Part shown: positions 1-43,466 of the stretch, piece after piece | Layout: each line of letters begins with the position of its first letter | How positions within the stretch are numbered: the first letter of the stretch is position 1 | From: a virus | Virus record (IMG/VR): IMGVR_UViG_3300017593_002040 | Coordinates: 1 to 43,466 of that record | DNA length: 43,466 bases | Direction: 5' to 3' (one strand) | Program-made: the position numbers and the translations under genes | The notes under the pieces: generated by a model | What the model saw: only the letters and a program-made list of their open reading frames with translations | Told to the model about the DNA's origin: nothing | The model's database searches: none

Positions 1-1251
1 ATGGAAGCCAAGTTAACCACTGCCAAAATTGAAAAACTAGAACCACAGGACAAACAATACTTCGTCTGGGATGCAAGGTTTGCAGGCTTAGGCGTGCGCG
101 TATCACCTGGCGGCAGTAAAGCGTTTGTTTATCAAGGTAGGATTGGCGGCACCGGCACACCTAAGCGTATCACTTTGGGTAAATTCCCCATTATGAGTCT
201 GCAAGATGCTATCGATGCGGCATCAGAGGTTAGTAAGCAGTTAGCGTCTGGCATTGATCCAAGACGTACCAAAGCTGACAACTTGGCAAAAAACAAAGCT
301 TTTGCTCGAGATCAAGTACGTAAAAAATTGACGTTTGGTGATCTCTTTACACACTATATCAATACGCACAAATCTGAATGGTCAGACAATTATAAGCTTG
401 ACCACTATGTAGCAGCGCGTCCTTATTTAACAGACAAGCCTTATTCTGCACAGCCAATCGGTAATATTTGGGAAGTCTCGCTTGCTGACCTCACGCCCGA
501 TTTTGTAGAGTCTTGGATTCGTAAAGAGAATGAGACGCGCGCTACTACGATGGCCAAGAACTTTCGTATGTTTAAAGCCTGTGCGAATTGGGCAGAGGAC
601 ACAGACAAGTATGCTGGCTTAATACCCAATAAGACGTATAACAGTCGCAAAGTTAATAAGTCAGTGCAAAATGTGCGGGCCCATAAAGGCTCTTTGCAGA
701 AACAGCAGCTTAAAACATGGTTTAGTGTAGTCGACCAGATTGATGACGTTCAAAGAGCAGCTTTGATTTGTATGCTGATGAATGGTTCTCGCCCGGGCGA
801 AATGCTACAGCTAAAATGGACTGACATAGATTTTGAATGGAATACTATTAAGATTGTCGATAAGGTTGATCAGTGGGAGCGAATTATTCCGCTGACACCT
901 TATACCAAGCAGACTATCCAAGCTTTGCCGCGTGTGAATGAATTTGTTTTTGGGAGTAAGGTAAGACAAGAAGGGTATATTGATATCACTAAGAAGTACC
1001 GCACGTTGCTTGTAGAGAGTGGGTTACCAAGCTTACCGCCTAAAGCCATGCGCAAATCATTCAGGACATTGTCTGAGTGGGTAGATGTACCGCGGGGAGT
1101 TGTCAATCAGGTTATGGGCCATCGTCCAAGTGCAATTGATGAGAAGCACTACGTTGACCGTCCGATTGATTTGTTGAGAATGTGGCATGGTAGGATTGAG
1201 CAATTCATACTAAAAGAGGCCGGTATAAATACCGACCATCTTTATGATTAA
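1..1251 (+). CDS. int: Phage tyrosine-recombinase integrase (P4-like, DUF4102 N-terminus)
   Basis: Site-specific recombinase that would insert and excise the prophage at an attachment site. Residues 1-90 look like the DUF4102 arm-binding domain, residues 105-210 like the core-binding SAM-like domain, and residues 230-400 like the catalytic domain. Catalytic residues visible are R264 (NGSRPGE), K348-x-x-R351 in place of the usual H-x-x-R, H374 (VMGHRP) and nucleophile Y384 (EKHY). Length (416 aa) is normal for the family. The ATG is the first base of the window, so its promoter, ribosome site and the nearest att site lie outside. It converges with the excisionase-like gene and overlaps its end by 4 bp. 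Identification is firm; target site is not visible. Confidence 0.95.
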   Translation: MEAKLTTAKIEKLEPQDKQYFVWDARFAGLGVRVSPGGSKAFVYQGRIGGTGTPKRITLGKFPIMSLQDAIDAASEVSKQLASGIDPRRTKADNLAKNKAFARDQVRKKLTFGDLFTHYINTHKSEWSDNYKLDHYVAARPYLTDKPYSAQPIGNIWEVSLADLTPDFVESWIRKENETRATTMAKNFRMFKACANWAEDTDKYAGLIPNKTYNSRKVNKSVQNVRAHKGSLQKQQLKTWFSVVDQIDDVQRAALICMLMNGSRPGEMLQLKWTDIDFEWNTIKIVDKVDQWERIIPLTPYTKQTIQALPRVNEFVFGSKVRQEGYIDITKKYRTLLVESGLPSLPPKAMRKSFRTLSEWVDVPRGVVNQVMGHRPSAIDEKHYVDRPIDLLRMWHGRIEQFILKEAGINTDHLYD

Positions 1252-3843: not shown

Positions 3844-5220
3844 TTAATTCCTTTTCATTGCGTTAAGTAAAATGTCTTGAACGCTACGCTTGGTGTCGCG
3901 GCGCTCCATAATGAGTTCATCGACGGTATCTTTTGCGATGATGTGGTAGATAAATACGGGGCGCTTGTGTCCGGCTTGCGCTTGGCGCGTGGGTCCGATA
4001 CGCTCCGCAATCTGCTGGTACTCTTCTAAGTTCCACCAATGGCCGAAGACGACTAAGATATTGCCGCCGTCTTGGAGGTTTAGGCCATGGCCTGCGCTCG
4101 CAGGATGGGCGAAAAGTATCGGAATTTTACCGGCGTTCCAATCGCGTATCGTTTGCGGATCACTGTCCAAAACTTTGCCTTGCTTAAAAGCGGCTTGCAG
4201 TCGCGCCAAGTCACTTTTGAAGTGGTAAGCGACTAGCACAGGCATACCTGCGGATTCCTCAACGATGGATTCGACCGCTTGTAACTTCGCGTCGTGCAAC
4301 GGTTGCCAGTTGCCACCTTCGGTATAAATCGCGCCGTTTGCCAACTGCAGGCACTTGATGGTTTTAGACGCGGCGTTCATCGCTTCGACTTCAACGTTGC
4401 CAAGCTCAAAGAACATCTCTTTTTGCATCTTGTCGTAGAGCGTTCGCGCTTTGCTTGGCAGCTCAACGTAAACGTCTGTGACGATAGGCTTTGCGATATC
4501 GAAGTAGTCGTGTGCGTCGAGTGTTAAGCAGATATCGCTTAAGCGTTCTTGGATTTGCTCTTGTGCGAAGTCGTGCGGCTCTAAGCGCACGGCAAAGCGC
4601 TGGGCACCGACTTGGATACTCTTAAACCATCTATCTTTGAACGCGGTAAACGAGTAGCCTAAGCGTTCGCCGCCATCTAGGAAGTAAGCCTGTCCCCATA
4701 AATCGATTAAACCGTTTGGGCTTGGCGTACCTGTTAACTCAATAAAGCGGTCAACATGGCTGTGGCATATTTTTGCTAACGCCCTTGCGCGTTTAGATCC
4801 GCCGCGTGAGCGGTAGGATTTCAAGCGTGTGGATTCATCGGCAATGATGGTTTTAAACGGCCAGTTTTTACCGTAGTGCTCTATGAGCCATGGTAGGTTT
4901 TCATAGTTCATCGTATAGACGGGACTATCGGTTTGCAGTGCGGCTTTACGATCTGCAGCGCTACCCAATATCGGCGTAACATCTAAGCCTTGCAGGTGTG
5001 ACCATTTAGCCGCTTCATCTGGCCATGTGGTCGCAGCGACTCGCTTCGGAGCTAATACTAAGACCGGCTCCGGCTCTACCAGTTGCAGGTTGTTGATGGC
5101 GGTTAAGCAGGTGACACTCTTGCCCATACCCATAGACGCCCAGAGTGCGTTACGCTTGGTGCTTAGGATATGGTCAAGCGCTATTTGCTGATAAGGGCGT
5201 GGTATGTAATCCTTGCGCAT
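3844..5220 (-). CDS. SNF2-type DEAD/H helicase (phage replication/recombination)
   Basis: ATP-dependent DNA translocase of superfamily 2. Walker A is GMGKS at residues 31-35, motif Ia APKR near 57-60, motif II ADES at 127-130 in the place of DEAH, motif III LTGTPSPNG near 165, and motif VI QQIAERIGPTRQ near residue 415. The C-terminal RecA domain carries SAGHGLNLQDGG. At 458 aa it is the compact phage form without extra domains. The start overlaps the VRR-NUC gene by 47 bp. Helicase next to VRR-NUC and a family A polymerase is a recurring phage replication module, so a role in replication or recombination-dependent restart is likely. Confidence 0.9.
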   Translation of the reverse strand: MRKDYIPRPYQQIALDHILSTKRNALWASMGMGKSVTCLTAINNLQLVEPEPVLVLAPKRVAATTWPDEAAKWSHLQGLDVTPILGSAADRKAALQTDSPVYTMNYENLPWLIEHYGKNWPFKTIIADESTRLKSYRSRGGSKRARALAKICHSHVDRFIELTGTPSPNGLIDLWGQAYFLDGGERLGYSFTAFKDRWFKSIQVGAQRFAVRLEPHDFAQEQIQERLSDICLTLDAHDYFDIAKPIVTDVYVELPSKARTLYDKMQKEMFFELGNVEVEAMNAASKTIKCLQLANGAIYTEGGNWQPLHDAKLQAVESIVEESAGMPVLVAYHFKSDLARLQAAFKQGKVLDSDPQTIRDWNAGKIPILFAHPASAGHGLNLQDGGNILVVFGHWWNLEEYQQIAERIGPTRQAQAGHKRPVFIYHIIAKDTVDELIMERRDTKRSVQDILLNAMKRN

Positions 5221-5497
5221 CTTTCATCTCACTTATAAGTTGGTCGACTTCGCCTTTGGTGCTGACGCTGACAACAATTTGCCCTGCGCGGCGCATTCGA
5301 GTATGTTCGCGTTCTTGTCCCGCTCTCGGCACTTTGCCAGGTGCTTTGACTTCTACCCAAACAGTGATATCGGGCGTCATGATTAAGCGGTCAGGGCAGT
5401 GGTTGTGTCCTACCCATTGCGCTTTGCGTATCTGCCAGTCCGTACCTTTTTGCGCTTGCTTGACAAGATATTGCTCAATGTCTTTTTCAGTGATCAC
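5174..5497 (-). CDS. VRR-NUC domain nuclease
   Basis: Small stand-alone PD-(D/E)xK-fold nuclease of the VRR-NUC family (107 aa, normal for phage versions). The core reads GHNHCPDRLIMTPDITVWVEVKAPG, with the catalytic D and E-x-K plus the following Q-x-x-x-H-x-x-M-R-x-AGQ helix typical of Holliday-junction-type nucleases. A GTG start is chosen, overlapping the upstream stop codon (AAGTGA), with AGGA about 10 bases upstream. Its end overlaps the helicase start, implying coupled synthesis. Structure-specific cleavage during phage replication is inferred from the family. Confidence 0.88.
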   Translation of the reverse strand: MITEKDIEQYLVKQAQKGTDWQIRKAQWVGHNHCPDRLIMTPDITVWVEVKAPGKVPRAGQEREHTRMRRAGQIVVSVSTKGEVDQLISEMKDAQGLHTTPLSANSA

Positions 5498-5901
5498 TTC
5501 GCCATATCCTTTTCAAAAACTTCAGTCGCCCACTTAATAGCTTTTTGTGCCAGCTCTGGGATACTGTCCGCGTAAATCCAGTGCATACGGTAGTAGCCCC
5601 ATGAGCTTGAATAACTATCATTGGTGCCAAAGGGCATAGCTATTGGTTTTGCAAATTTCGCTAGAAAACCATATAGACCAGCTTCGTAAAACAATTCCTC
5701 TAGGTCGTCGCGCGTCTGTATGTCGTCGCGTCTCTCTACTGGTATGCCCATCGCGTCGAGCGTTTCATCAAAATCATCTTCTAAAATGATTTCAGCCAAA
5801 CGTCCGGTCAGAGCGGTAAGCGGCGTCATGAATAGCGGGTGCATTTCTTCGCACCGCATATCATGTTCACAAAACAATTCTGCAATTTCTCTATTATTCA
5901 T
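5494..5901 (-). CDS. Hypothetical acidic phage protein
   Basis: Unrecognised 135-aa acidic protein located between the polymerase and VRR-NUC genes. The ATG at 5901 is chosen because GGAAGG lies 8 bases upstream, overlapping the end of the polymerase gene. Features are an acidic helix (EIILEDDFDETLDAMGI), several aromatic residues (SSSWGYYRMHWIYAD), and a C-terminal helix. There is no signal peptide or known motif. Its placement in the replication block suggests an accessory to polymerase or nuclease, but this is only context. Confidence 0.65.
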   Translation of the reverse strand: MNNREIAELFCEHDMRCEEMHPLFMTPLTALTGRLAEIILEDDFDETLDAMGIPVERRDDIQTRDDLEELFYEAGLYGFLAKFAKPIAMPFGTNDSYSSSWGYYRMHWIYADSIPELAQKAIKWATEVFEKDMAK

Positions 5902-5903
5902 AA

Positions 5904-7958
5904 TCAATCCTTCCTATATCGGTAGTCTTCAAAGCCACCTGCAGCAAGCGGCATGTCTTTGGCCCAAGGCGGGTTAGCGGCTAACAGTTCGCTTAAGTGT
6001 TCGTGATTAAAGTCGGCGGTATCAGGCGCTTCACATATCACTTCGTCGTGGACGGTTAAAACAATCTTATAACCGGCTTTGTCGATGGTGTGCATGTTGT
6101 GCGCTAAGATATCGCGGCTCATGGCTTGGCAGATATTCTCAAAAAGCTTACCGCTGTAAGTGCTGAGATATTGCCATTTGCGGGTATATTGGTTCATACC
6201 CTGATACTGGATCGTATCGTCTTTGATGCGGATATTTGGGTAACACAGATAACGACCGCTTGGCAGCCTGATGCGTAACCAGGTGCCGTCACGACGTATG
6301 GCTAATTTACCCGCTCGGAACGTTTGGCCTTCAGCGTTAATCGCATTGCGACAAGCGTTCTCTAGGTCATACCAAAGCTGATTGATATTACTGTGAGCGG
6401 TCCGCCACATGCGTTTGAGCGTGTCGCAGGTGATAAATGCTTTATCGCCCATGGTGTGCTCGTATTCTTTGTCCTTTTTGCGGACTGCAAGCCATGAGCG
6501 TGACGCTTCGACTTCTTGCGCGGGTAGTGTGTCCCATGCGTCATCGGCTAACTGATCAAGGTCAATACCGTAAGCCGTAGCGAACGTAGTAAACGCGCCA
6601 ACGCCGCCGCCGTAACCTAGTGCTAATTCCTGCACCTTACCGATTTGCCGTTGGTCTTTAGTGACCGCTTTAGGCGATACGCCAAACGATTTAGCGTAAG
6701 CCAGTTTATAAAGGTCGTAGCCTTCTCCTTTGTCAAAATCGGCAAAGGCTTTTAGCTTCCACGTTTCACCGGCAAGCCATGCTTGAGCGCGTCCTTCGAT
6801 GTTCGATAAGTCACTGACGACTAGCTTTTTGCCTTTAGGCGCGATGATGCAGCCGCGTAGCGCTGAGCTTGTCAGCTCCATGATGTTATCGGTGATAAAC
6901 TCGGCGCAGTCTGCTTTGAGCGCTTCGATACCGGCATTGATAGCCGCGTCGCTCATACTTGGGCGTGGTAGGTTTTGCGGTTGGAATGTGCGACCCGCCC
7001 AGCGTCCGGTGCGTGCGGCTCCGGCAAATTGCAATGTGCCACGAAGTCGCCCATCGCTATTGGTAGAACGTGCAAGCGCTTGGTATTTACTGGTACTGGT
7101 CGTGCTCGCTTGCAGTCGGTTATTGAGTAGGTCTTTGACTGCGCTTGGTAAGTCCGGATCATTGATGCGGCGCTCAAGCGTAGACTTTTGCATATCCGGT
7201 AAATCGATACCGTATTCGCTCAAGATAAATTCGAGAAGCGCGGCGCGTTGTGTTGCCGATTCAACGGCTCCATCGGTCATCATCTGCGCTTGTTCTGCTA
7301 AGCGTATTTTTTCAATATCAATAGCGATAAGCGCAGCGTCTACCAGTTCGGTGTCTACCTTAAAGCCGCGGTCATTGATAACCTGGTCAAGATGCCAGTG
7401 CGGTATCTCGCAAGCCATGTTCCAATCGGGCATTGCCTTATCTACTGCGCGCATTGCCTCAACGTCTAGCCGTGCGTATTCGACAAACTTACCCCATTCT
7501 TCAGGGTGAGTGTCTTTGGTAGCGCGTTCGAGCGTTCTGTTTTTGCCTAAAGGCTTGCAGAATAATTGAATGAGCTTTTTACCGTCTTTGTCTTTGGCTT
7601 GGTCAGCTTCTACGCCTAAGATTTCGCACAAGTTGCCGAGGCTGCCGACTAAGCTGTGGCTGTACGCTTTGATCATCGTGTCGCGCCATTTGCTTATATC
7701 TGCATTGAAGCCGTTAGCGTTTAGCACGTTACGGTCAAACATTGAGTTATGCGCGACGATGATGTCAGCTCTACTTAACAAGTCCTTAATGATGATGTTG
7801 TAATCTTTGCCGCTTGTCATATCAATAACTTTTGCGGGTTCATCGTTCCAAGCGTAAGCGAAAAGCAGTATCTCAGCGTCAGCGGCGTATTTATAGGTGC
7901 CGTGCTTGATAGGCGTTCCGCTGAAGGTTTCTAAATCTAAAAATAATGTATTAGCCAT
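5904..7958 (-). CDS. Family A DNA polymerase with 3'-5' exonuclease
   Basis: Replicative phage DNA polymerase of the Pol I type, 684 aa. The N-terminus carries exonuclease motif FLDLETF (D8, E10) of the DEDD family. Polymerase motif A is VVSDLSNIEGR near residue 383, motif B is the RQIGKVQELALGYGG helix near 439-452, and motif C is VLTVHDEV near 635. No 5'-nuclease domain is present, as expected for phage enzymes. The ribosome site is AGGAG. A 274-bp gap with palindromic repeats lies upstream. Together with the SSB, helicase, nucleases and the primase at 13025 it supplies a nearly self-sufficient replisome. Confidence 0.95.
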   Translation of the reverse strand: MANTLFLDLETFSGTPIKHGTYKYAADAEILLFAYAWNDEPAKVIDMTSGKDYNIIIKDLLSRADIIVAHNSMFDRNVLNANGFNADISKWRDTMIKAYSHSLVGSLGNLCEILGVEADQAKDKDGKKLIQLFCKPLGKNRTLERATKDTHPEEWGKFVEYARLDVEAMRAVDKAMPDWNMACEIPHWHLDQVINDRGFKVDTELVDAALIAIDIEKIRLAEQAQMMTDGAVESATQRAALLEFILSEYGIDLPDMQKSTLERRINDPDLPSAVKDLLNNRLQASTTSTSKYQALARSTNSDGRLRGTLQFAGAARTGRWAGRTFQPQNLPRPSMSDAAINAGIEALKADCAEFITDNIMELTSSALRGCIIAPKGKKLVVSDLSNIEGRAQAWLAGETWKLKAFADFDKGEGYDLYKLAYAKSFGVSPKAVTKDQRQIGKVQELALGYGGGVGAFTTFATAYGIDLDQLADDAWDTLPAQEVEASRSWLAVRKKDKEYEHTMGDKAFITCDTLKRMWRTAHSNINQLWYDLENACRNAINAEGQTFRAGKLAIRRDGTWLRIRLPSGRYLCYPNIRIKDDTIQYQGMNQYTRKWQYLSTYSGKLFENICQAMSRDILAHNMHTIDKAGYKIVLTVHDEVICEAPDTADFNHEHLSELLAANPPWAKDMPLAAGGFEDYRYRKD

Positions 7959-10059: not shown

Positions 10060-10518
10060 TTATGCTGCTTTGCACAGTGCGACAAGCTCACCGTACTGAC
10101 TTGGTTCAAGACCAGGTAGGTTCTTAGCGCCTAACTGCTTGAAGATTGCGGCGACTGCCGGTTTGCCTTTGGTAGATACGGCATCGATGACGACGCTTTT
10201 GGCTTCTTCAAAAGATATCGGCTTGTCGCTTTGTTCTTCTGCTACTTCTTCAACTACCGGCTCAACGGCTTCGGCGACTTCTTCAACTACCGGCTCGGCT
10301 TCTTCTTCAGCTTTTGCCTTATGCTCTTCGTGCTCTGCTTCAAACTCAGCGACCGCTTTGCCGATGACTTCTTTCATTTCAGCGTCGTCACCAGTGCTGA
10401 CCGCTTGGTCTTGAGACAAATCACAGTAGCGGTCGATACCTGATGCGATTGCGAATCCGGCTTGTGCCAGTGTGCCGATGGCGTCTGCCAGTTTGGTAAT
10501 GCCGTTCTCGATACTCAT
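10060..10518 (-). CDS. Hypothetical protein with a Glu/Val/Pro repeat linker
   Basis: 152-aa acidic protein in three parts: a helical N-terminus (MSIENGITKLADAIGTLAQAGFAI), a charged linker with the repeat EPVVEEVAEA / EPVVEEVAEE (two copies, also visible as a 30-bp direct DNA repeat near 10240-10300), and a C-terminal 50-residue domain ending LGAKNLPGLEPSQYGELVALCKAA. That last domain resembles small C-terminal domains of other phage early proteins of unknown role. A good ribosome site (AAAGGATAAGACC) precedes the ATG. The linker repeat may vary in copy number between related phages. Confidence 0.65.
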   Translation of the reverse strand: MSIENGITKLADAIGTLAQAGFAIASGIDRYCDLSQDQAVSTGDDAEMKEVIGKAVAEFEAEHEEHKAKAEEEAEPVVEEVAEAVEPVVEEVAEEQSDKPISFEEAKSVVIDAVSTKGKPAVAAIFKQLGAKNLPGLEPSQYGELVALCKAA

Positions 10519-13024: not shown

Positions 13025-15577
13025 ATGGACCATACTATGCAAGCAAAAAGACTATGTGACGGGGCTTATAGCATCGTGCCAATTAATATGGGGCAAAAAG
13101 GGCCCCTGATTAAAGAGTGGCAAAAGAAGACGTTTACCGCTGAAGATATTGACGCCGGTATCGGTGTGAAGTGTGGCATTGGTGAATATCCGGTATGCGC
13201 TATCGATATCGATGTGCTCAATCCGGAACTGACTGCGGCTTTGGCGAGTTGGTGCCATGAGCATTTAGGTATGACCGTTGAGCGTGTCGGACAAGCGCCG
13301 AAAACCATGCTTATCTATCGTGCCGCTGAGAGTGGTTGGTCAAAGGCGGCGAGCCGTTGGTTTACCAGCGCCGATAGTGAAGTGAAGCAGCGCGTTGAGA
13401 TACTGGGGAAAGGGCAGCAGTTCGTAGCATACCATATTCACCCCGACACAAACGAGCCGTATGAGTGGACCGATATGCTTGGCGGTCTGGAATACACGCC
13501 AGCGTCTGAGTTACCAATAGTCACCGCCGATGAAATAACGCAAGTGCTAGAAGTCTTTGAGCAAATGGCGTTAGACGCAGGTATGCAAGTTTGTAGCGGT
13601 TCATCTGCCAAAACTATCAATAGCGGTAAAGCAGATCCTGAAGACTTCACCGCCGGTGCCAAAGTAGGGGTGACGCTAAAAGAAGCGGCAAAGCTACTCA
13701 ATAACCTTGACGCTGCAGACTATGACCGCTGGTTACAAGTCGGTATGGCGCTGCATCATGAATACGACGGTAGTGATGATGCCTTTAACGTTTGGGATGA
13801 CTGGTCACAAAAAGCGGAGAACTACTCAAGCTTAGAGGACTTAGAAAAGCGCTGGTCCGGCTTTGGTCACGATGGTGGCGGTATCACCATTCGCACATTG
13901 CTCAAGTGGGGCAATGACGCCAATACGCAGCAAAAACGCGCACAGAAGCGTGACGCTATTCAAGACTATAAAGACCGCATCGAAGAGTGTAGCGATGGCT
14001 TTGAGTTTGAGGAAACGCTACGCGCTATTGGCCGTGAGCTAGATAAGAACGAAGTCATTACCTGCAATGAAGTACGCGCGACTGCCAAGACAAAATACAA
14101 AGCCATGATGAAGCAGACGATCTCGGATGCCAATATCAATACGCTTTTAGGGCTTGGACGCGACACTAGCGCTGAGAACTTAGAACGTCAGATGCAATAT
14201 ACCGAGTTCGGTAACGCACGCCGTATGCTTGAGTTGTTCGGTGAGAACATTATGTTTGCGGCAGATACCGAGACCTGGTACCGCTGGACAGGGAGTTACT
14301 GGCGCGTATCGGCACAGGCTGAGCTTGAGCAGTTATCCAAAGATACGCTGATGCAACTTATCGCTGATGGCGCTGAGCAAGGCATATTAGCCAGTGATCA
14401 ATACGACTTCGTTAAGAACAGTCTAAAAGTCGCCATGATGACCGCCATGGTAAAAATCATCCGTACTGAAAAAAGCATCTTAGTAAACACTGGTGACTTA
14501 GACGCTAACAAAATGCTGTTTGGGGTGGCCAACGGTGCCATCGATTTGACCACGGGTGATCTAATACCGTCGGACAGACTGGACCGTATCACGATTGCCA
14601 GTCACACCAAATATAAGCCTGATGCTAAATGCCCACTGTTTGAGCAAACCGTCAGTGAGTGTTTTTACGGGGATACTGAGCTGGTCGAGTTCTTTCAACG
14701 TTTGATGGGGTACACCTTACTTGCAGATCCTAAAGAAGACATTATCGTCATACCGTACGGCACCGGTAGTAATGGTAAGTCGACTGTCTTAGGCGCTATT
14801 CGTGACGCGATGGGTGCGCATGCTATTACCGCATCCAATGAGACGTTCTTAGGTAGTGGCGGCGCTAATGCTGGTGGTCCGCGTGACGATATCCTACGCC
14901 TTCGCGGTAGTCGCTTTGTCTATGTGACTGAGCCTGATGAAGACCGCGAACTAAAAGAAGGGTTGATCAAATCGATGACGGGCGGCGAGGCCATGGCAGC
15001 GCGCGCGGCATACTCACGTACGTTCGTACAGTTCACGCCCACATGGACAGTCATACTACCTACCAACCACAAGCCTATCATTAAGGGTGACGACTTCGGT
15101 ATCTGGCGCCGCATCATGCTTGTACCCTTTACCCGTAACTTCAGTACCGACCCCGATATCGTCAAAGACAATGACCGTAGCGAAAAGCTAAAGGCTGAAT
15201 ATGAAGGCATCCTGGCATGGCTTGTACGTGGTGCGATGTCTTACTTAGAGATGGGGCTTCAGCCACCGGCCATCGTTGAGGAAGCGCGTAACGAATATAA
15301 GAGCGATATGGACCTACTCGCTGAGTGGATAGAAGAGTGCTGTGAGATTGGTCGGGATAAGGTCGCTACTAACGCGGCGCTGTGGGCCAGTTGGAAACAG
15401 TTTGCTGAGGTGCGCGGTGAGCTGAGATATATCAGTAATGCTAGAACACTGAACAAAAAACTGGAAGCGCGAACATACGTGAAAAGAGTCAAGAACTCTG
15501 ATGGTATTCGCGGACGCGGTATTTTGGGTATATCCGTCAAAGATGACTTTGAGAATGTAGAGGACGGCATGGCGTAA
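13025..15577 (+). CDS. D5/P4-type primase-helicase (Prim-Pol + PriCT + SF3 helicase)
   Basis: 850-aa multidomain replication initiator. Residues 1-150 form an AEP-type primase-polymerase domain, with a DID metal motif near residue 61 and RVEILGKGQQFVAYHIHP near 124-141. A PriCT-like segment lies near 218-280 (WLQVGMALHHEYDG ... VWDDWSQKAENY). The C-terminal half is a D5_N plus superfamily 3 helicase, with Walker A GTGSNGKST near 579-587 and a Walker B-like RGSRFVYVTEPDED further on. It would prime and unwind at the phage origin; P4 alpha is the best-known relative. The ribosome site is poor, so the start might be the ATG at 13037. It follows a hairpin and precedes the repeat region at 15625. 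Confidence 0.92.
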   Translation: MDHTMQAKRLCDGAYSIVPINMGQKGPLIKEWQKKTFTAEDIDAGIGVKCGIGEYPVCAIDIDVLNPELTAALASWCHEHLGMTVERVGQAPKTMLIYRAAESGWSKAASRWFTSADSEVKQRVEILGKGQQFVAYHIHPDTNEPYEWTDMLGGLEYTPASELPIVTADEITQVLEVFEQMALDAGMQVCSGSSAKTINSGKADPEDFTAGAKVGVTLKEAAKLLNNLDAADYDRWLQVGMALHHEYDGSDDAFNVWDDWSQKAENYSSLEDLEKRWSGFGHDGGGITIRTLLKWGNDANTQQKRAQKRDAIQDYKDRIEECSDGFEFEETLRAIGRELDKNEVITCNEVRATAKTKYKAMMKQTISDANINTLLGLGRDTSAENLERQMQYTEFGNARRMLELFGENIMFAADTETWYRWTGSYWRVSAQAELEQLSKDTLMQLIADGAEQGILASDQYDFVKNSLKVAMMTAMVKIIRTEKSILVNTGDLDANKMLFGVANGAIDLTTGDLIPSDRLDRITIASHTKYKPDAKCPLFEQTVSECFYGDTELVEFFQRLMGYTLLADPKEDIIVIPYGTGSNGKSTVLGAIRDAMGAHAITASNETFLGSGGANAGGPRDDILRLRGSRFVYVTEPDEDRELKEGLIKSMTGGEAMAARAAYSRTFVQFTPTWTVILPTNHKPIIKGDDFGIWRRIMLVPFTRNFSTDPDIVKDNDRSEKLKAEYEGILAWLVRGAMSYLEMGLQPPAIVEEARNEYKSDMDLLAEWIEECCEIGRDKVATNAALWASWKQFAEVRGELRYISNARTLNKKLEARTYVKRVKNSDGIRGRGILGISVKDDFENVEDGMA

Positions 15578-15982
15578 TACTTGCGGGTAGGTCGTTAACC
15601 CGCAATCTTTGCGGATTGGCTTCTATATTTGGGACGGTGGGGGCGATAGTTTTTAACATTTTATTTTAATTAAGGGTAAAAGTTAGGTTTTTAAGATATT
15701 TGGGACGATAAGGACGATAAGTACCCCATTTTGAAAAACCTCTCTTATATAGACAACTCTTTGTTATATGCCCTTTTATCGTCCTTATCGTCCCAACTCT
15801 ATTTTTTCCCCTTATTTATTCTTTTTTGAGTTAAGAAAAAAGAATAAAGGGAAAATATAGATAGACAAAAGTTTGTTATCAGTTTTAAAGGCGCCGGAGC
15901 TGAATCCCTGCCTAGAAGGGCCGCCGGTTTAGAGTATAAAAAAGTATATCGATGTTTATAAATGCTTATTGAGGATTGAATT
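15578..15982. other. 405-bp non-coding region after the primase gene; candidate origin
   Basis: No convincing gene. In order it holds: a TTGCGGGT / ACCCGCAA hairpin (15581-15605); a degenerate GGGACGGTGGGGGCGATAG unit (15631-15649); a GGGACGATAAGGACGATAA unit (15702-15720) and its exact inverted copy (15776-15794), the match extending to 21 bp; an AT-rich ATTCTTTTTT / AAAAAAGAAT hairpin (15818-15845); and a GC-rich block (15890-15927). Repeats plus AT-rich DNA beside a P4-type primase-helicase are what a replication origin would look like, but the role is inferred. Confidence 0.5.
15700..15796. repeat. 21-bp perfect inverted repeat made of GGACGATAA units
   Basis: Arms at 15700-15720 and 15776-15796 are exact reverse complements separated by 55 bp of AT-rich sequence. 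Each arm holds two tandem GGACGATAA-like units, and a third, degenerate direct copy lies at 15628-15649. The iteron-like arrangement could bind the primase-helicase, or the stem could act in the transcript. Confidence 0.7.
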
Positions 15983-18361: not shown

Positions 18362-18847
18362 ATGGCGACCCTTAACAATAAGGTTAAGGCCTTTATTGTA
18401 CAAGGGCTTGCTACCTATATGACCCCATCCGAAGTAGTGGAAGCTGTCAATCAAGAATTTGACGGGCTGAAAGTTACAAGACAGCAGGTATCGAACTACG
18501 ACCCTGGCAAAGCAGCTGCAGTTAATTTGTCTCAGAAATGGAAGGACCTATTCAAGAAATTCCGTGATGACTTTAACAATGATATTCAGGCGATACCTAT
18601 CGCTAACAAAGCTTATCGTTTAAATATGCTTGACCGTATGGCTCGTGATGCAGAGAAGTCAAAGAACAGGCCATTGGCGGCAAGCTTACTCGAGCAAGCA
18701 GCTAAAGACGTGGGCGAGGTCTACACCAATAAACAGAAAGTTGATAACACCTCCAGTGATAAAAGCATGACTCCAGTTGTCAATAACTTCAACGGTGACG
18801 CTCAAGCGGCCAGTCAAGCCTATCAGGATATTATGGGTGGTAAATAA
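18362..18847 (+). CDS. Terminase small subunit (DUF2280)
   Basis: 161-aa protein of the DUF2280 family, which sits immediately upstream of large terminase genes and is regarded as a small subunit. Residues 5-65 look like a helix-turn-helix ([20 protein letters not shown], then [14 protein letters not shown]), followed by a helical oligomerisation part. The stop overlaps the large-subunit ATG by one base (TAATG). It would recognise the packaging site and regulate the large subunit. Confidence 0.85.
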
Positions 18848-20439
18848 TGCCTATCCCTTTTGCATTTGACTTTAACAATCCTGATTACGCTCAAGTATTT
18901 GAGTGGCGCATTGAGAGATTGCAGCGTATTAGACAAAATCCTGAGTCACTACCGGCTCTCAAGGCATTTTACAAAGACAATCCAGCTCAGTTTATTATTG
19001 ACTGGGGCGTGACTTACGACCCGCGCAACATTGAACGCGGCTTACCCTCATACATACCGTTTTTGTTGTTTCCAAAGCAAGAAGAGTGGATCCATTGGCT
19101 GATGGACGGTTGGAAGTTGCAAAAGCCGTCCATTACGGAGAAGACACGGGATATGGGTATGTCATGGCTCATGATGGGCTTGTCGTGCTCACTAGGTCTG
19201 CACAATAACGGTTTATCAGTCGGTGTCGGTAGTCGTAAAGAGGAATACGTTGATCTAATCGGCAGTCCAAAAGCTTTGTTTGAAAAAGGCCGTATGTTTT
19301 TAAGTGGATTGCCTCCTGAGTTCCGTGGCGGTTGGATTCGTGAGAAGCACAGCCCTTTTAAGCGCATTATATTCCCAGAAACTGGCAGTGTGATTACTGG
19401 TGAGGCAGGTGACGGCATTGGTCGTGGTGATAGAGCGTCATTGTATTTTGTTGATGAAGCGGCTTTCTTAGAGCGACCACACTTGGTTGATGCGTCACTA
19501 TCAGCTACCACCAACAGCCGTAATGATATATCTACACCCAATGGCATGAGCAATTCATTTGCTATACGTCGTCACGCTGGGCGCATTCGCGTTTTTACGT
19601 TTCATTGGCGTGATGATCCACGCAAAGATGATGCGTGGTATGACAAGCAAGTGGAGGAGCTTGACGAAGTAACAGTAGCTCAAGAGATTGATATTGATTA
19701 TTCAGCGTCAGTTGAAGGGGTGCTAATACCGTCGGCATGGGTCCAGTCTGCCATTGATGCTCATAAAAAGCTGGGCATAACTATTAGTGGCAGTAAGGTG
19801 ATGGCGCTTGATGTGGCAGACGAAGGTATTGATAAAAACTCTATCGCTGGTCGTCATGGCGTGTTGCTCAATCACTTGGATACATGGAGCGGTAAAGGCT
19901 CAGACATTTTTGCCACGTCTAAAAAAGCAGTCGAGGCAACCGCTGATAGTCAATCAGAGTATTTTTTGTATGACGCTGATGGATTAGGCGCGGGTGTCAA
20001 GGGTGATGCTAGGGTGGTGAACGAGCAGCGCAAAGGCATGAAGGATGTTATTAATTATCCATTCAGGGGGTCGGCTGGTATCTATAAGCCTGAAGCCGAG
20101 GATATTCTAGGTAAGAAAAACAGTGATGCTTTTGATAACTTCAAAGCTCAATCTGGATGGGCGTTACGTAAGCGTTTCTTGTTGACGCATAGGGCTGTAA
20201 AGGACGGCATGGCGTTTCATCCTGATGACATTATTAGTATTGATAGCACGTTGACTGAACTCACAACCCTGACAACAGAGCTATCGCAGCCAACCTACGC
20301 AAAAACCAATGCGGGGAAAATTTTGATTAATAAAAAACCTAAAGGTACGCCATCGCCAAACCGATTTGATGCGGTGATGATGGTGTTCGCTGACAACATG
20401 GTTAAGAAGCCAAAATCCGTATTCGATGTCGTAGGCTAA
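18847..20439 (+). CDS. Terminase large subunit
   Basis: 530-aa DNA-packaging motor. The ATPase domain has a Walker A-like TRDMGMSW near residues 99-106, Walker [10 protein letters not shown] near 199-206 and a following SATTNS coupling motif. The C-terminal RNase H-like nuclease carries [11 protein letters not shown] near 317 and [11 protein letters not shown] near 372. Length is normal. The last 53 codons or so (from 20283) lie inside the rearranged segment; an inverted copy of them is at 23276-23432. This copy is intact. Confidence 0.95.
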
Positions 20440-20449
20440 GAGACAAACT

Positions 20450-21718
20450 ATGCTAAATAAACTAATAAATATTGCCGACAGCACGCTAGTTAATCTAGTT
20501 AGTAAGCTTGGTACCAGTCGAGATAAGGCCAGTCATGATACATTTGCGTGGCATGTACCAAAGTCAGTGTTTGAGCTGGACAATCTTTACGACTCAAACG
20601 GCACAGCATCTAAGATTATTGATAAGCCTGTTCAAGATATGTTTAGACAAGGTTATTACTTTGAGGGTATCGCAGGTACAGACCTACAAAAGCTAAATGA
20701 TGAGCTTGATCGTCTAAGTATCGATGTGCATTTGAACAGAGCTATGCGTCTATCAAGACTGCACGGCAAGTCATTTATCTTGCTCGCTGCTGATAGCGTT
20801 AAGCCGCTTATAACGCCACTTGGCAACAATGATGCGCTTAGCTACATAACCACGTTGTCAGTGTCTCAGTTGGCAGCAGGTAGTGAGATGCGTCCAGCAT
20901 CAGAGGCAGGCGGATATTATGACAAGCCTGTTTATTATCGACTGCAAAAAAGTATGGGCGGTACAGCAGGTAGCATCGTTCACCACAGCCGCATCATTGA
21001 GGTCGTATGGGGCGATGGTAAAGGTGTGATGGATAAGATACATGATGAGCTATTGCGCTTTGCTAGTGTCAATGCTAACGCTGCATCACTGGTGCATGAA
21101 GCTAAGATTGACATCATTAAAACGCCTGACCTAGCCAATCAGATTCAGCAAAACTCGGAATCTATCCTAAAGCGTTTTGCCTTGGTTGGCATGCTCAAGG
21201 GCAACAATGGCACCGTCCTACTAGACACAGAGGAGGATTATCAAAGCAAGACCTATAACTTCTCCGGTCTGCCTGATTTGATGCAAGAGTTTTCTGTGCA
21301 GTTGGCATCTGTTGCCGACATACCTTATACGGTGCTGTTTGGTCGCTCACCTGCTGGTATGAACGCGACTGGTGAACATGACCTAAAGAACTACTACGAC
21401 ACAGTAGGCAGCTATCAGCGAGACTATGAGCGCCCTGTGCTTAGACGACTGATTAAAATCATAAGCAATTACTTATTACCAAAAGGCGTTGATCCTAAGC
21501 TGGTCTTTAGTCCGCTATGGCAGGTCGATGAGAAGACGCTGAGTGAGATTGAGAAAAACAATGCTGAGCGCGATGAGCGTTATATAGAATTAGGTGTCAT
21601 CACAGAGGCTCAGACTGCCAAGCAACTGGTGGAGCAAGGCACTTATACCGTAATTGATGACGCACACATCAAGCTATTAGACGGTCTTAATCTGAGTATG
21701 GGGCAAGATGATGCTTGA
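20450..21718 (+). CDS. Portal protein (DUF1073 / Phage_portal type), intact copy
   Basis: 422-aa portal of the DUF1073 family. The N-terminus LINIADSTLVNLVSKLGTSR, the segment YDSNGTASKIIDKPVQDMFR, and the C-terminal FGRSPAGMNATGEHDLKNYYD are hallmarks. Twelve copies would form the ring through which DNA is packaged and to which the neck attaches. It overlaps the head gene by 11 bp. This is the only complete copy in the rearranged region; a 3'-truncated inverted copy (22270-23265) and a 5'-truncated direct copy (23442-24134) follow. Confidence 0.92.
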   Translation: MLNKLINIADSTLVNLVSKLGTSRDKASHDTFAWHVPKSVFELDNLYDSNGTASKIIDKPVQDMFRQGYYFEGIAGTDLQKLNDELDRLSIDVHLNRAMRLSRLHGKSFILLAADSVKPLITPLGNNDALSYITTLSVSQLAAGSEMRPASEAGGYYDKPVYYRLQKSMGGTAGSIVHHSRIIEVVWGDGKGVMDKIHDELLRFASVNANAASLVHEAKIDIIKTPDLANQIQQNSESILKRFALVGMLKGNNGTVLLDTEEDYQSKTYNFSGLPDLMQEFSVQLASVADIPYTVLFGRSPAGMNATGEHDLKNYYDTVGSYQRDYERPVLRRLIKIISNYLLPKGVDPKLVFSPLWQVDEKTLSEIEKNNAERDERYIELGVITEAQTAKQLVEQGTYTVIDDAHIKLLDGLNLSMGQDDA

Positions 21719-22520
21719 CCAACTGACACCGCTAATACAGCAACAGAGTAAACGTAAACGAGGTCGTAAGGCGAAGGCGCGTCCTATCTATGTGTCTCGT
21801 AAGCTTGAGTTGGACTACACAAGAGCGCTACTAAGTCTCGTTAATGAAATGCACGCTGAGACAGTAACAGCATTGATGCCGCTGATTGAGCAAACACCCA
21901 GAGTTGGTGATAGCAGACGACGGATAGCTGACAGCTTATTCAGCGACTTTAAGAGCGCGTTTAGTAGGACAGCCAACACAGTAAAAGCCAAAGTATCAGG
22001 CATTGCAGAAACATTCGCGAAAACGGTAGTTAGCAAACAGCGTGAAGTGTCAGACGGTCAGCTTACAGACATACTGCTCAAGCAGACAGGCATAGACTTT
22101 AGCGGAGTGATGGCTGACGAGGCGCTACAAGAGGCGATTGATGAGGCGGTAGCGGCTAATGTGGCGCTTATCACGTCTATACCGCAGCAGTATCTTGATA
22201 AGGTCGAACAGGCGGTCATGGCTAGCCTACAAGCTGGTACGCTTAACGCGACTTTAGCTGATGAGTTGGCTAAGATTGAGGGCGCTCATAGTCTCGCTGA
22301 TAGCTGCCTACTGTGTCGTAGTAGTTCTTTAGGTCATGTTCACCAGTCGCGTTCATACCAGCAGGTGAGCGACCAAACAGCACCGTATAAGGTATGTCGG
22401 CAACAGATGCCAACTGCACAGAAAACTCTTGCATCAAATCAGGCAGACCGGAGAAGTTATAGGTCTTGCTTTGATAATCCTCCTCTGTGTCTAGTAGGAC
22501 GGTGCCATTGTTGCCCTTGA
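21708..22520 (+). pseudogene. Head morphogenesis gene, 5' copy broken at the inversion junction
   Basis: The first 192 codons equal those of the intact gene at 24124. At 22279-22284 the sequence switches to the inverted copy, so the frame continues for about 78 unrelated codons (starting AHSLADSCLL) to a chance stop. The Mu F signature at the C-terminus (PGQPIRCRC) is lost. Its start and ribosome context are unchanged, so a chimeric protein is probably still made and could interfere with head assembly. Confidence 0.88.
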
Positions 22521-23265
22521 GCATGCCAACCAAGGCAAAACGCTTTAGGATAGATTCCGAGTTTTGCTGAATCTGATTGGCTAGGTCAGGCGTTTTAATG
22601 ATGTCAATCTTAGCTTCATGCACCAGTGATGCAGCGTTAGCATTGACACTAGCAAAGCGCAATAGCTCATCATGTATCTTATCCATCACACCTTTACCAT
22701 CGCCCCATACGACCTCAATGATGCGGCTGTGGTGAACGATGCTACCTGCTGTACCGCCCATACTTTTTTGCAGTCGATAATAAACAGGCTTGTCATAATA
22801 TCCGCCTGCCTCTGATGCTGGACGCATCTCACTACCTGCTGCCAACTGAGACACTGACAACGTGGTTATGTAGCTAAGCGCATCATTGTTGCCAAGTGGC
22901 GTTATAAGCGGCTTAACGCTATCAGCAGCGAGCAAGATAAATGACTTGCCGTGCAGTCTTGATAGACGCATAGCTCTGTTCAAATGCACATCGATACTTA
23001 GACGATCAAGCTCATCATTTAGCTTTTGTAGGTCTGTACCTGCGATACCCTCAAAGTAATAACCTTGTCTAAACATATCTTGAACAGGCTTATCAATAAT
23101 CTTAGATGCTGTGCCGTTTGAGTCGTAAAGATTGTCCAGCTCAAACACTGACTTTGGTACATGCCACGCAAATGTATCATGACTGGCCTTATCTCGACTG
23201 GTACCAAGCTTACTAACTAGATTAACTAGCGTGCTGTCGGCAATATTTATTAGTTTATTTAGCAT
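22270..23265 (-). pseudogene. Inverted 3'-truncated copy of the portal gene
   Basis: Antisense to the late operon. Encodes the first 329 portal residues identically (from MLNKLINIADST to QRDYERP) plus two residues from beyond the junction. The ribosome site was copied too, but there is no obvious minus-strand promoter, so expression is unlikely. The last 90 or so residues of the portal are missing. Confidence 0.88.
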
Positions 23266-23432
23266 AGTTTGTCTCTTAGCCTACGACATCGAATACGGAT
23301 TTTGGCTTCTTAACCATGTTGTCAGCGAACACCATCATCACCGCATCAAATCGGTTTGGCGATGGCGTACCTTTAGGTTTTTTATTAATCAAAATTTTCC
23401 CCGCATTGGTTTTTGCGTAGGTTGGCTGCGAT
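22279..23432 (-). repeat. Inverted middle copy (copy B) of the rearrangement
   Basis: 1154 bp, reverse complement of 20283-21436. With copy A it makes long inverted arms separated by 842 bp (21437-22278). With copy C it makes 425-bp inverted arms, 22279-22703 against 23428-23852, separated by 724 bp. Confidence 0.93.
23276..23432 (-). pseudogene. Inverted fragment of the large terminase 3' end
   Basis: Reverse-complement copy of 20283-20439, coding for the last 50 or so terminase residues ([16 protein letters not shown] to FDVVG). The open frame continues upstream on the minus strand through antisense copy C sequence, which is a chance extension. It marks the end of the inverted segment at the GCGAT junction. 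Confidence 0.85.
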
Positions 23433-24700
23433 GGTAAAGGTGTGATGGATAAGATACATGATGAGCTATTGCGCTTTGCTAGTGTCAATGCTAACGCTGC
23501 ATCACTGGTGCATAAAGCTAAGATTGACATCATTAAAACGCCTGACCTAGCCAATCAGATTCAGCAAAACTCGGAATCTATCCTAAAGCGTTTTGCCTTG
23601 GTTGGCATGCTCAAGGGCAACAATGGCACCGTCCTACTAGACACAGAGGAGGATTATCAAAGCAAGACCTATAACTTCTCCGGTCTGCCTGATTTGATGC
23701 AAGAGTTTTCTGTGCAGTTGGCATCTGTTGCCGACATACCTTATACGGTGCTGTTTGGTCGCTCACCTGCTGGTATGAACGCGACTGGTGAACATGACCT
23801 AAAGAACTACTACGACACAGTAGGCAGCTATCAGCGAGACTATGAGCGCCCTGTGCTTAGACGACTGATTAAAATCATAAGCAATTACTTATTACCAAAA
23901 GGCGTTGATCCTAAGCTGGTCTTTAGTCCGCTATGGCAGGTCGATGAGAAGACGCTGAGTGAGATTGAGAAAAACAATGCTGAGCGCGATGAGCGTTATA
24001 TAGAATTAGGTGTCATCACAGAGGCTCAGACTGCCAAGCAACTGGTGGAGCAAGGCACTTATACCGTAATTGATGACGCACACATCAAGCTATTAGACGG
24101 TCTTAATCTGAGTATGGGGCAAGATGATGCTTGACCAACTGACACCGCTAATACAGCAACAGAGTAAACGTAAACGAGGTCGTAAGGCGAAGGCGCGTCC
24201 TATCTATGTGTCTCGTAAGCTTGAGTTGGACTACACAAGAGCGCTACTAAGTCTCGTTAATGAAATGCACGCTGAGACAGTAACAGCATTGATGCCGCTG
24301 ATTGAGCAAACACCCAGAGTTGGTGATAGCAGACGACGGATAGCTGACAGCTTATTCAGCGACTTTAAGAGCGCGTTTAGTAGGACAGCCAACACAGTAA
24401 AAGCCAAAGTATCAGGCATTGCAGAAACATTCGCGAAAACGGTAGTTAGCAAACAGCGTGAAGTGTCAGACGGTCAGCTTACAGACATACTGCTCAAGCA
24501 GACAGGCATAGACTTTAGCGGAGTGATGGCTGACGAGGCGCTACAAGAGGCGATTGATGAGGCGGTAGCGGCTAATGTGGCGCTTATCACGTCTATACCG
24601 CAGCAGTATCTTGATAAGGTCGAACAGGCGGTCATGGCTAGCCTACAAGCTGGTACGCTTAACGCGACTTTAGCTGATGAGTTGGCTAAGATTGAGGGCG
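23428..24700 (+). repeat. Direct copy (copy C) of 21012-22284
   Basis: 1273-bp direct repeat at a constant offset of 2416 bp. One difference was found by comparing translations and local sequence (21098 G, 23514 A). Recombination between the two direct copies would restore the simple arrangement and remove 2416 bp. Confidence 0.92.
23442..24134 (+). pseudogene. 5'-truncated direct copy of the portal gene (C-terminal 230 aa)
   Basis: Resumes the portal frame after the B/C junction; an in-frame stop lies at 23418-23420, so there is no fusion to anything upstream. GTG-ATG at 23442 after AAAGG could start translation of a C-terminal portal fragment, which would also keep coupling to the intact head gene that overlaps its end. 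Differs from the intact gene by G to A at 23514 (Glu to Lys). Confidence 0.85.
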
Positions 24701-24999
24701 TAACTCGTAATAGAGCTAAGCTGATTGCAACTGATCAGTTAGGCAAGATTAACAGCCGATTATCACAGGTTAGACAGCAATCGCTGGGCATCACTCACTA
24801 CACATGGTCAACCAGTCAAGACGAGCGCGTGAGGGCTAAGCATAATAACCGCGAAGGCGACATGATAGCGTGGAATAATCCACCACCTGATGGTCATCCC
24901 GGGCAGCCCATCCGCTGTCGATGCACTGCGATACCTTACACCGATCATTTAACAGGTGGGCCAACCGCTGAAGAAGCTATGGGGTTACAGAATGAATAG
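24124..24999 (+). CDS. Head morphogenesis protein, Mu F / SPP1 gp7 type, intact copy
   Basis: 291-aa minor head protein. The C-terminal region carries ATDQLGKINSRLSQVRQ, then YTWSTSQDERVRAKHNNREG and PGQPIRCRC, the standard Mu F-like signature. These proteins bind the portal and enter the procapsid. The N-terminus is basic (KRKRGRKAKARPIY) and helical. It overlaps the truncated portal copy before it by 11 bp and the small membrane gene after it. This is the only complete copy. Confidence 0.9.
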   Translation: MMLDQLTPLIQQQSKRKRGRKAKARPIYVSRKLELDYTRALLSLVNEMHAETVTALMPLIEQTPRVGDSRRRIADSLFSDFKSAFSRTANTVKAKVSGIAETFAKTVVSKQREVSDGQLTDILLKQTGIDFSGVMADEALQEAIDEAVAANVALITSIPQQYLDKVEQAVMASLQAGTLNATLADELAKIEGVTRNRAKLIATDQLGKINSRLSQVRQQSLGITHYTWSTSQDERVRAKHNNREGDMIAWNNPPPDGHPGQPIRCRCTAIPYTDHLTGGPTAEEAMGLQNE

Positions 25000-43202: not shown

Positions 43203-43279
43203 TGGTGGGCCCAGTAGGACTTGAACCTACGACCAAAGGATTATGAGTCCTCTGCTCTAACCAACTGAGCTATGGGCCC
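43203..43279 (-). tRNA. tRNA with CAT anticodon (Met, or Ile2 read by lysidine)
   Basis: 77-nt cloverleaf, 5' GGGCCCATAGCTCAGTTGG, anticodon loop CTCATAA, T-arm GGTTCAAGTCC, and encoded CCA. The acceptor has C4-G69 and C5-G68 with discriminator A, which in E. coli mark the TilS-modified Ile2 rather than elongator Met, so tRNA-Ile(CAT) is a real possibility. Its 3' end faces the prophage. Confidence 0.93.
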
Positions 43280-43286
43280 TTAAATA

Positions 43287-43315
43287 AATATAAATTAAAA
43301 ACTTTTAAAAATCAA
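43287..43315 (-). promoter_or_regulatory. Promoter of the tRNA gene
   Basis: On the minus strand TTGATT (43315-43310), a 17-bp spacer and TATATT (43292-43287), 8 bp before the mature 5' end. AT-rich surroundings fit a tRNA promoter. Confidence 0.65.
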
Positions 43316-43325
43316 TATTCTCTAT

Positions 43326-43347
43326 TCGGACCCTTGTCCGATTTTTT
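43326..43347 (+). terminator. Intrinsic terminator in the host flank
   Basis: TCGGAC / GTCCGA stem with a CCTT loop followed by TTTTTT on the plus strand. It separates anything arriving from the left from the reading frame that starts at 43368. Confidence 0.7.
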
Positions 43348-43367
43348 AAACAAGAGATTTTAAAATT

Positions 43368-43466
43368 ATGGAGGGATTTAATAAAAGAGTTTTAGTTCGT
43401 TCTCATGATCCTAATGCTCCTCTATTTATGTTTGAGGATAAATGTCTAACCATTTTTACCTCCTCT
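43368..43466 (+). CDS. Start of a possible host gene (partial)
   Basis: Open frame of 33 codons running off the window: MEGFNKRVLVRSHDPNAPLF then MFEDKCLTIFTSS. No strong ribosome site precedes it. Too short to recognise. Confidence 0.35.
   Translation, partial: MEGFNKRVLVRSHDPNAPLFMFEDKCLTIFTSS

What the first reader, a model, noticed from the sequence alone, without database searches (positions are those of the whole stretch)
20283..24700. Tandem inversion duplication across the portal and head genes with microhomology junctions
Seen directly: forward 20283-22284, then the reverse complement of 20283-21436 (22279-23432), then forward 21012-22284 again (23428-24700). The junctions share AGGGCG and GCGAT with the two donor sites. 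Three copies with the middle inverted is the pattern called tandem inversion duplication in enteric bacteria, thought to arise by template switching at short repeats. Copies are almost identical, so the event is recent. In an essential late operon this is striking, because the order keeps one full portal and one full head gene. Multiple displacement amplification or assembly can create the same pattern, and that must be excluded first.
Basis: partly seen in the sequence, partly recalled or inferred. Interest (0 to 1): 0.85.

Follow-up and report, generated by a model that had tools for sequence, protein, structure and literature searches.

The report
Inverted triplication across phage head genes
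A Psychrobacter prophage sequence carries a forward-inverted-forward repeat of its portal and head genes, made by two DNA-copying jumps at 5-6 matching bases; known copying accidents give this pattern, and it may well have arisen in the test tube rather than in the cell.

Summary
Window 20283-22284 is followed by an exact inverted copy of 20283-21436 (1154/1154) and then by a forward copy of 21012-22284 (1272/1273). Junction overlaps are AGGGCG (6 nt) and GCGAT (5 nt). Four relatives, 73-81% identical over this stretch, run unbroken through the simple arrangement, so 2416 bp are extra here. The geometry is that of a tandem inversion duplication (DUP-TRP/INV-DUP): two successive inverted template switches at microhomology. 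It is not a chance repeat and not a conserved phage trait.

Whether it happened in a cell or during DNA amplification cannot be told from one sequence. Both switches match published phi29 amplification chimeras (inverted, under 5 kb apart, overlap peak 6 nt). The single difference, G to A at a conserved portal Glu codon, lies 82 nt past the second junction, which weakly favours error-prone synthesis in vivo.

New here: four isomers share identical canonical k-mers up to 420, and three of them up to 1150. So the statement that the order keeps one full portal and one full head gene rests on reads longer than about 1.15 kb. Known kind either way; low interest.

The parts
20283..22284 (+). Copy 1 (segments X 20283-21011, Y 21012-21436, Z 21437-22284)
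22279..23432 (-). Copy 2, inverted copy of 20283-21436 (Y' X'), 100% identical
23428..24700 (+). Copy 3, forward copy of 21012-22284 (Y Z), one difference
22279..22284 (.). Junction 1: AGGGCG overlap; switch from + strand at 22284 to - strand at 21436 (inverted, about 0.85 kb)
23428..23432 (.). Junction 2: GCGAT overlap; switch from - strand at 20283 to + strand at 21012 (inverted, about 0.73 kb)
23514..23514 (+). Only difference between copies: A (copies 1 and 2 have G); Glu217 to Lys at a site that is Glu in three relatives; 82 nt past junction 2
18847..20439 (+). Terminase large subunit gene; its last 157 bp lie in the repeat
20450..21718 (+). Portal protein gene, full length in the deposited order
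21708..22520 (+). Head morphogenesis gene cut at junction 1 and running into antisense portal sequence (270 aa; profile match ends at residue 191)
22270..23265 (-). Inverted, C-terminally cut portal gene (331 of 422 aa), antisense to the operon
23276..23554 (-). Chimeric reading frame across junction 2 holding the terminase C-terminal end, inverted
23442..24134 (+). N-terminally cut portal gene (230 aa)
24124..24999 (+). Head morphogenesis gene, full length

Best explanation
One growing DNA strand made two successive inverted template switches. At 22284 its 3' end (AGGGCG) paired with the complement at 21431-21436 and copied back to 20283. There its end (GCGAT) paired at 21012-21016 and copied forward through 22284 into the normal continuation. 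Of the possible settings I think it slightly the most likely that this happened in vitro (phi29-type whole-genome amplification or another amplified library) and was frozen into the assembly. Shown: the three copies, the two overlaps, the simple arrangement in relatives. Inferred: the switching, and where it happened.
For: Exact copies and overlaps. Overlap lengths beyond chance. Relatives L004, L006, L009 and L005 align as one uninterrupted match across the simple order, and Psychrobacter phage pOW20-A is annotated terminase-portal-head in single copies. Published phi29 chimeras: 85% inverted, mostly <10 kb, priming at 2-21 nt, about half switching upstream (PMC1855051); distances 0-5000 nt, overlap peak 6 nt and mostly 5-8 nt (PMC4595205). 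Multi-inversion molecules and misassembly are known from amplified long-read data (PMC13265396). No other record carries either junction (near copies of this record may be hidden there).
Against: Source and sequencing method of the record are hidden, and most public records are probably not amplified. The record has only this one structure in 43 kb. Both junctions must lie on one molecule that dominated the data. Putting the copies in the deposited order needs reads or pairs over about 1.15 kb, which fits unamplified long-read or jumping-library data at least as well. The one difference, close to junction 2, fits in-vivo error-prone replication.
Confidence: 0.45

Rival explanations
1. A genuine, recent tandem inversion duplication in the prophage, formed in the cell by fold-back or microhomology-mediated template switching (the Kugelberg/Roth snap-back model, or MMBIR/FoSTeS).
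For: Geometry equals TID / DUP-TRP/INV-DUP. Both switches go back over already copied DNA, as snap-back predicts. The only difference lies 82 nt past junction 2 in the redundant cut portal copy, at a codon that is Glu in relatives; a human event of this class carries a new point mutation about 50 bp from a junction, and raised point mutation is described at junction 2 (PMC4352052). Chance of one difference falling that close is about 0.04-0.07.
Against: Spacers of 724 and 842 nt are large for fork hairpins and need long single-stranded DNA (compare PMC10164571). No notable hairpin at any breakpoint (z from -1.5 to 0). 1273-bp direct repeats should restore the simple order quickly by homologous recombination. 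No relative has it.
Confidence: 0.4
2. Assembler or read-structure artefact without any chimeric template (false join, or missing-adapter palindromic long reads).
For: The order is not determined by short reads.
Against: Overlaps of 5-6 nt are far below any assembly k-mer, so an assembler alone cannot make these joins. Missing-adapter reads turn at one point without the 842-nt and 724-nt loops.
Confidence: 0.12
3. A functional or selected arrangement (invertible segment, dosage of head genes).
For: None found beyond the structure itself.
Against: Absent from all relatives; no recombinase gene near it was noticed in the reading-frame list; extra copies are cut and partly antisense.
Confidence: 0.02

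Closest known systems
Tandem inversion duplication (TID), Salmonella enterica (Kugelberg et al. 2010, cited through PMC4689423)
   Same: Three copies with the middle inverted, short inverted repeats at both joins, flanks kept
   Different: No known selection here; located in a prophage; origin in vivo not shown; original paper not held, so its junction sizes could not be compared
DUP-TRP/INV-DUP rearrangements (human PLP1/MECP2; PMC4352052)
   Same: Copy-number pattern 2-3-2 with inverted middle; microhomology; a point change near junction 2
   Different: Kilobase scale here; both joins are microhomology and neither uses long inverted repeats
phi29 MDA inverted chimeras (PMC1855051, PMC4595205)
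   Same: Inverted, under 5 kb, 5-8 nt overlap
   Different: Two switches that return to the original order, and present in an assembled consensus
ODIRA inverted triplications in yeast (PMC4689423)
   Same: Interstitial inverted triplication at short interrupted inverted repeats
   Different: No replication origin shown inside; spacers of hundreds of nt

Membership tests
Tandem inversion duplication | Direct-inverted-direct copies with flanks retained | tested here: met
Tandem inversion duplication | Short inverted repeats or microhomology at both joins | tested here: met
   6 and 5 nt, p 0.0016 and 0.0053
Tandem inversion duplication | Present in cellular DNA | not testable with these tools
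   no reads or source metadata held
Tandem inversion duplication | Palindrome or quasi-palindrome at the starting join (expected by some models, from memory; not required of remodelled joins) | tested here: inconclusive
   breakpoint folds not better than shuffles; later remodelling could have removed it
phi29 MDA chimera | Inverted join, under 5 kb, 5-8 nt overlap | tested here: met
phi29 MDA chimera | Source DNA was amplified | not testable with these tools
   record source hidden
ODIRA | Active replication origin within the triplicated segment | not tested
   none sought; head genes, no origin expected

The most novel reading that the evidence does not exclude
A real, freshly formed tandem inversion duplication caught in a temperate phage's essential head operon, in equilibrium among four isomers by recombination between its own repeats, with a replication-linked point change next to junction 2.
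Probability: 0.35. Interest if true: 0.45.

Novelty: new member of a known kind. Interest (0 to 1): 0.22.

Why it matters
If real, it is an unselected natural example of a class of rearrangement known mostly from selection experiments and human disease, small enough to read completely. If it is an amplification chimera, it is a warning: it creates false truncated and antisense head genes in a viral catalogue and can be recognised by a 2-3-2 copy pattern with 5-8 nt overlaps.

Tried and rejected
Psychrobacter genus search (105 genomes): two genomes carry portal-region relatives over 1.8 kb, single copy, and none is near-identical. Hairpins at breakpoints: none beyond shuffles. Imperfect homology upstream of the overlaps: junction 1 p=0.011, junction 2 p=0.13, not convincing overall. 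Genome relatives of a virus record cannot be drawn. Kugelberg 2010 is not held. An attempted head-protein alignment failed on coordinates; one search covers the point at DNA level. A programmed inversion was rejected for lack of any support.

Full report
Observation. The inverted copy is identical over 1154 nt. The forward copies differ at one base in 1273 (21098 G, 23514 A). The joins share AGGGCG and GCGAT. Independent repeat searches give the same places. Copy number is 2 for 20283-21011, 3 for 21012-21436 and 2 for 21437-22284; 2416 bp are extra.

Context. The record is a virus record of 43,466 bases, one contig. It begins at the first base of an integrase gene and ends 187 bp past a tRNA-Met. 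That tRNA and its downstream stretch match Psychrobacter genomes, so I read it as a prophage cut out of a host contig. The affected genes are terminase large subunit (last 157 bp), portal and head morphogenesis.

Simple arrangement. Joining the two flanks of the insertion locally gives a stretch that aligns without interruption to L004 and L006 (81%), L009 (75%, Psychrobacter sp. ANT_WB68) and L005 (73%). None of these has internal repeats of the kind. pOW20-A has single portal and head genes. In 98 related loci (1.37 Mb) no inverted repeat of 100 bp or more was found. The structure is therefore derived and peculiar to this record.

Mechanism. Random inverted joins at comparable distance reach 6-nt overlap with p=0.0016 and 5-nt with p=0.0053, so the joins were made by microhomology pairing. 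An assembler cannot join on 5-6 nt, so molecules bearing the junctions very probably existed. Two consecutive inverted switches explain everything with no further step.

In the cell or in the tube. phi29 amplification gives 85% inverted chimeras, mostly under 10 kb, primed at 2-21 nt (PMC1855051), with overlaps peaking at 6 nt and distances 0-5 kb (PMC4595205). The joins here (6 and 5 nt; about 0.85 and 0.73 kb) sit in the middle of that. The same geometry is called TID in Salmonella and DUP-TRP/INV-DUP in human DNA. The single base difference is 82 nt past junction 2 and changes a Glu that is Glu in three relatives. Raised point mutation near junction 2 is described for human events. With one base (chance about 0.04-0.07) this is a hint only. 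Persistence is also a problem for the in-vivo reading: 1273-bp direct repeats should recombine back to the simple order (established knowledge of duplication instability, not tested here).

Isomers. Writing the parts as L X Y Z Y' X' Y Z R, flipping Z and/or X' gives three other orders with the same junctions. All four have identical canonical k-mer content at every tested k up to 420; orders 1, 2 and 4 stay identical up to k=1150 and separate at 1160 (the comparison ignored the one base difference). Sense full-length portal genes number 1, 0, 2 and 1 in the four orders, and head genes 1 in each. The same repeats would let the four orders interconvert by recombination in a cell (inference).

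Verdict. Observation confirmed. Interpretation partly supported. A known kind of copying accident, about equally likely to be laboratory-made or cellular on the evidence at hand; low interest until reads are seen.

Noticed in passing
window 43203-43466: tRNA-Met followed by 187 bp; the tRNA and up to about 180 bp on its 3' side match Psychrobacter genomes at 80-92%, the last 187 bp match none by DNA; probable host side of the integration site.
   Followed up: partly
window 1-1251: The record starts exactly at the integrase ATG, so the left host flank was probably trimmed by gene boundary and the left attachment site is missing.
   Followed up: no
window 3844-7958 versus L053-L055, L060-L062: Mosaic phage: helicase and polymerase proteins are 95-98% identical to three IMG/VR phages in which the head-gene region found no DNA match.
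   Followed up: partly
window 15693-15803: Imperfect 28-nt inverted repeat with a 55-nt loop just after the large gene that ends at 15577.
   Followed up: no
window 10236-10301: 33-nt tandem repeat inside a small gene, giving a repeated acidic EEVAE-type stretch.
   Followed up: no
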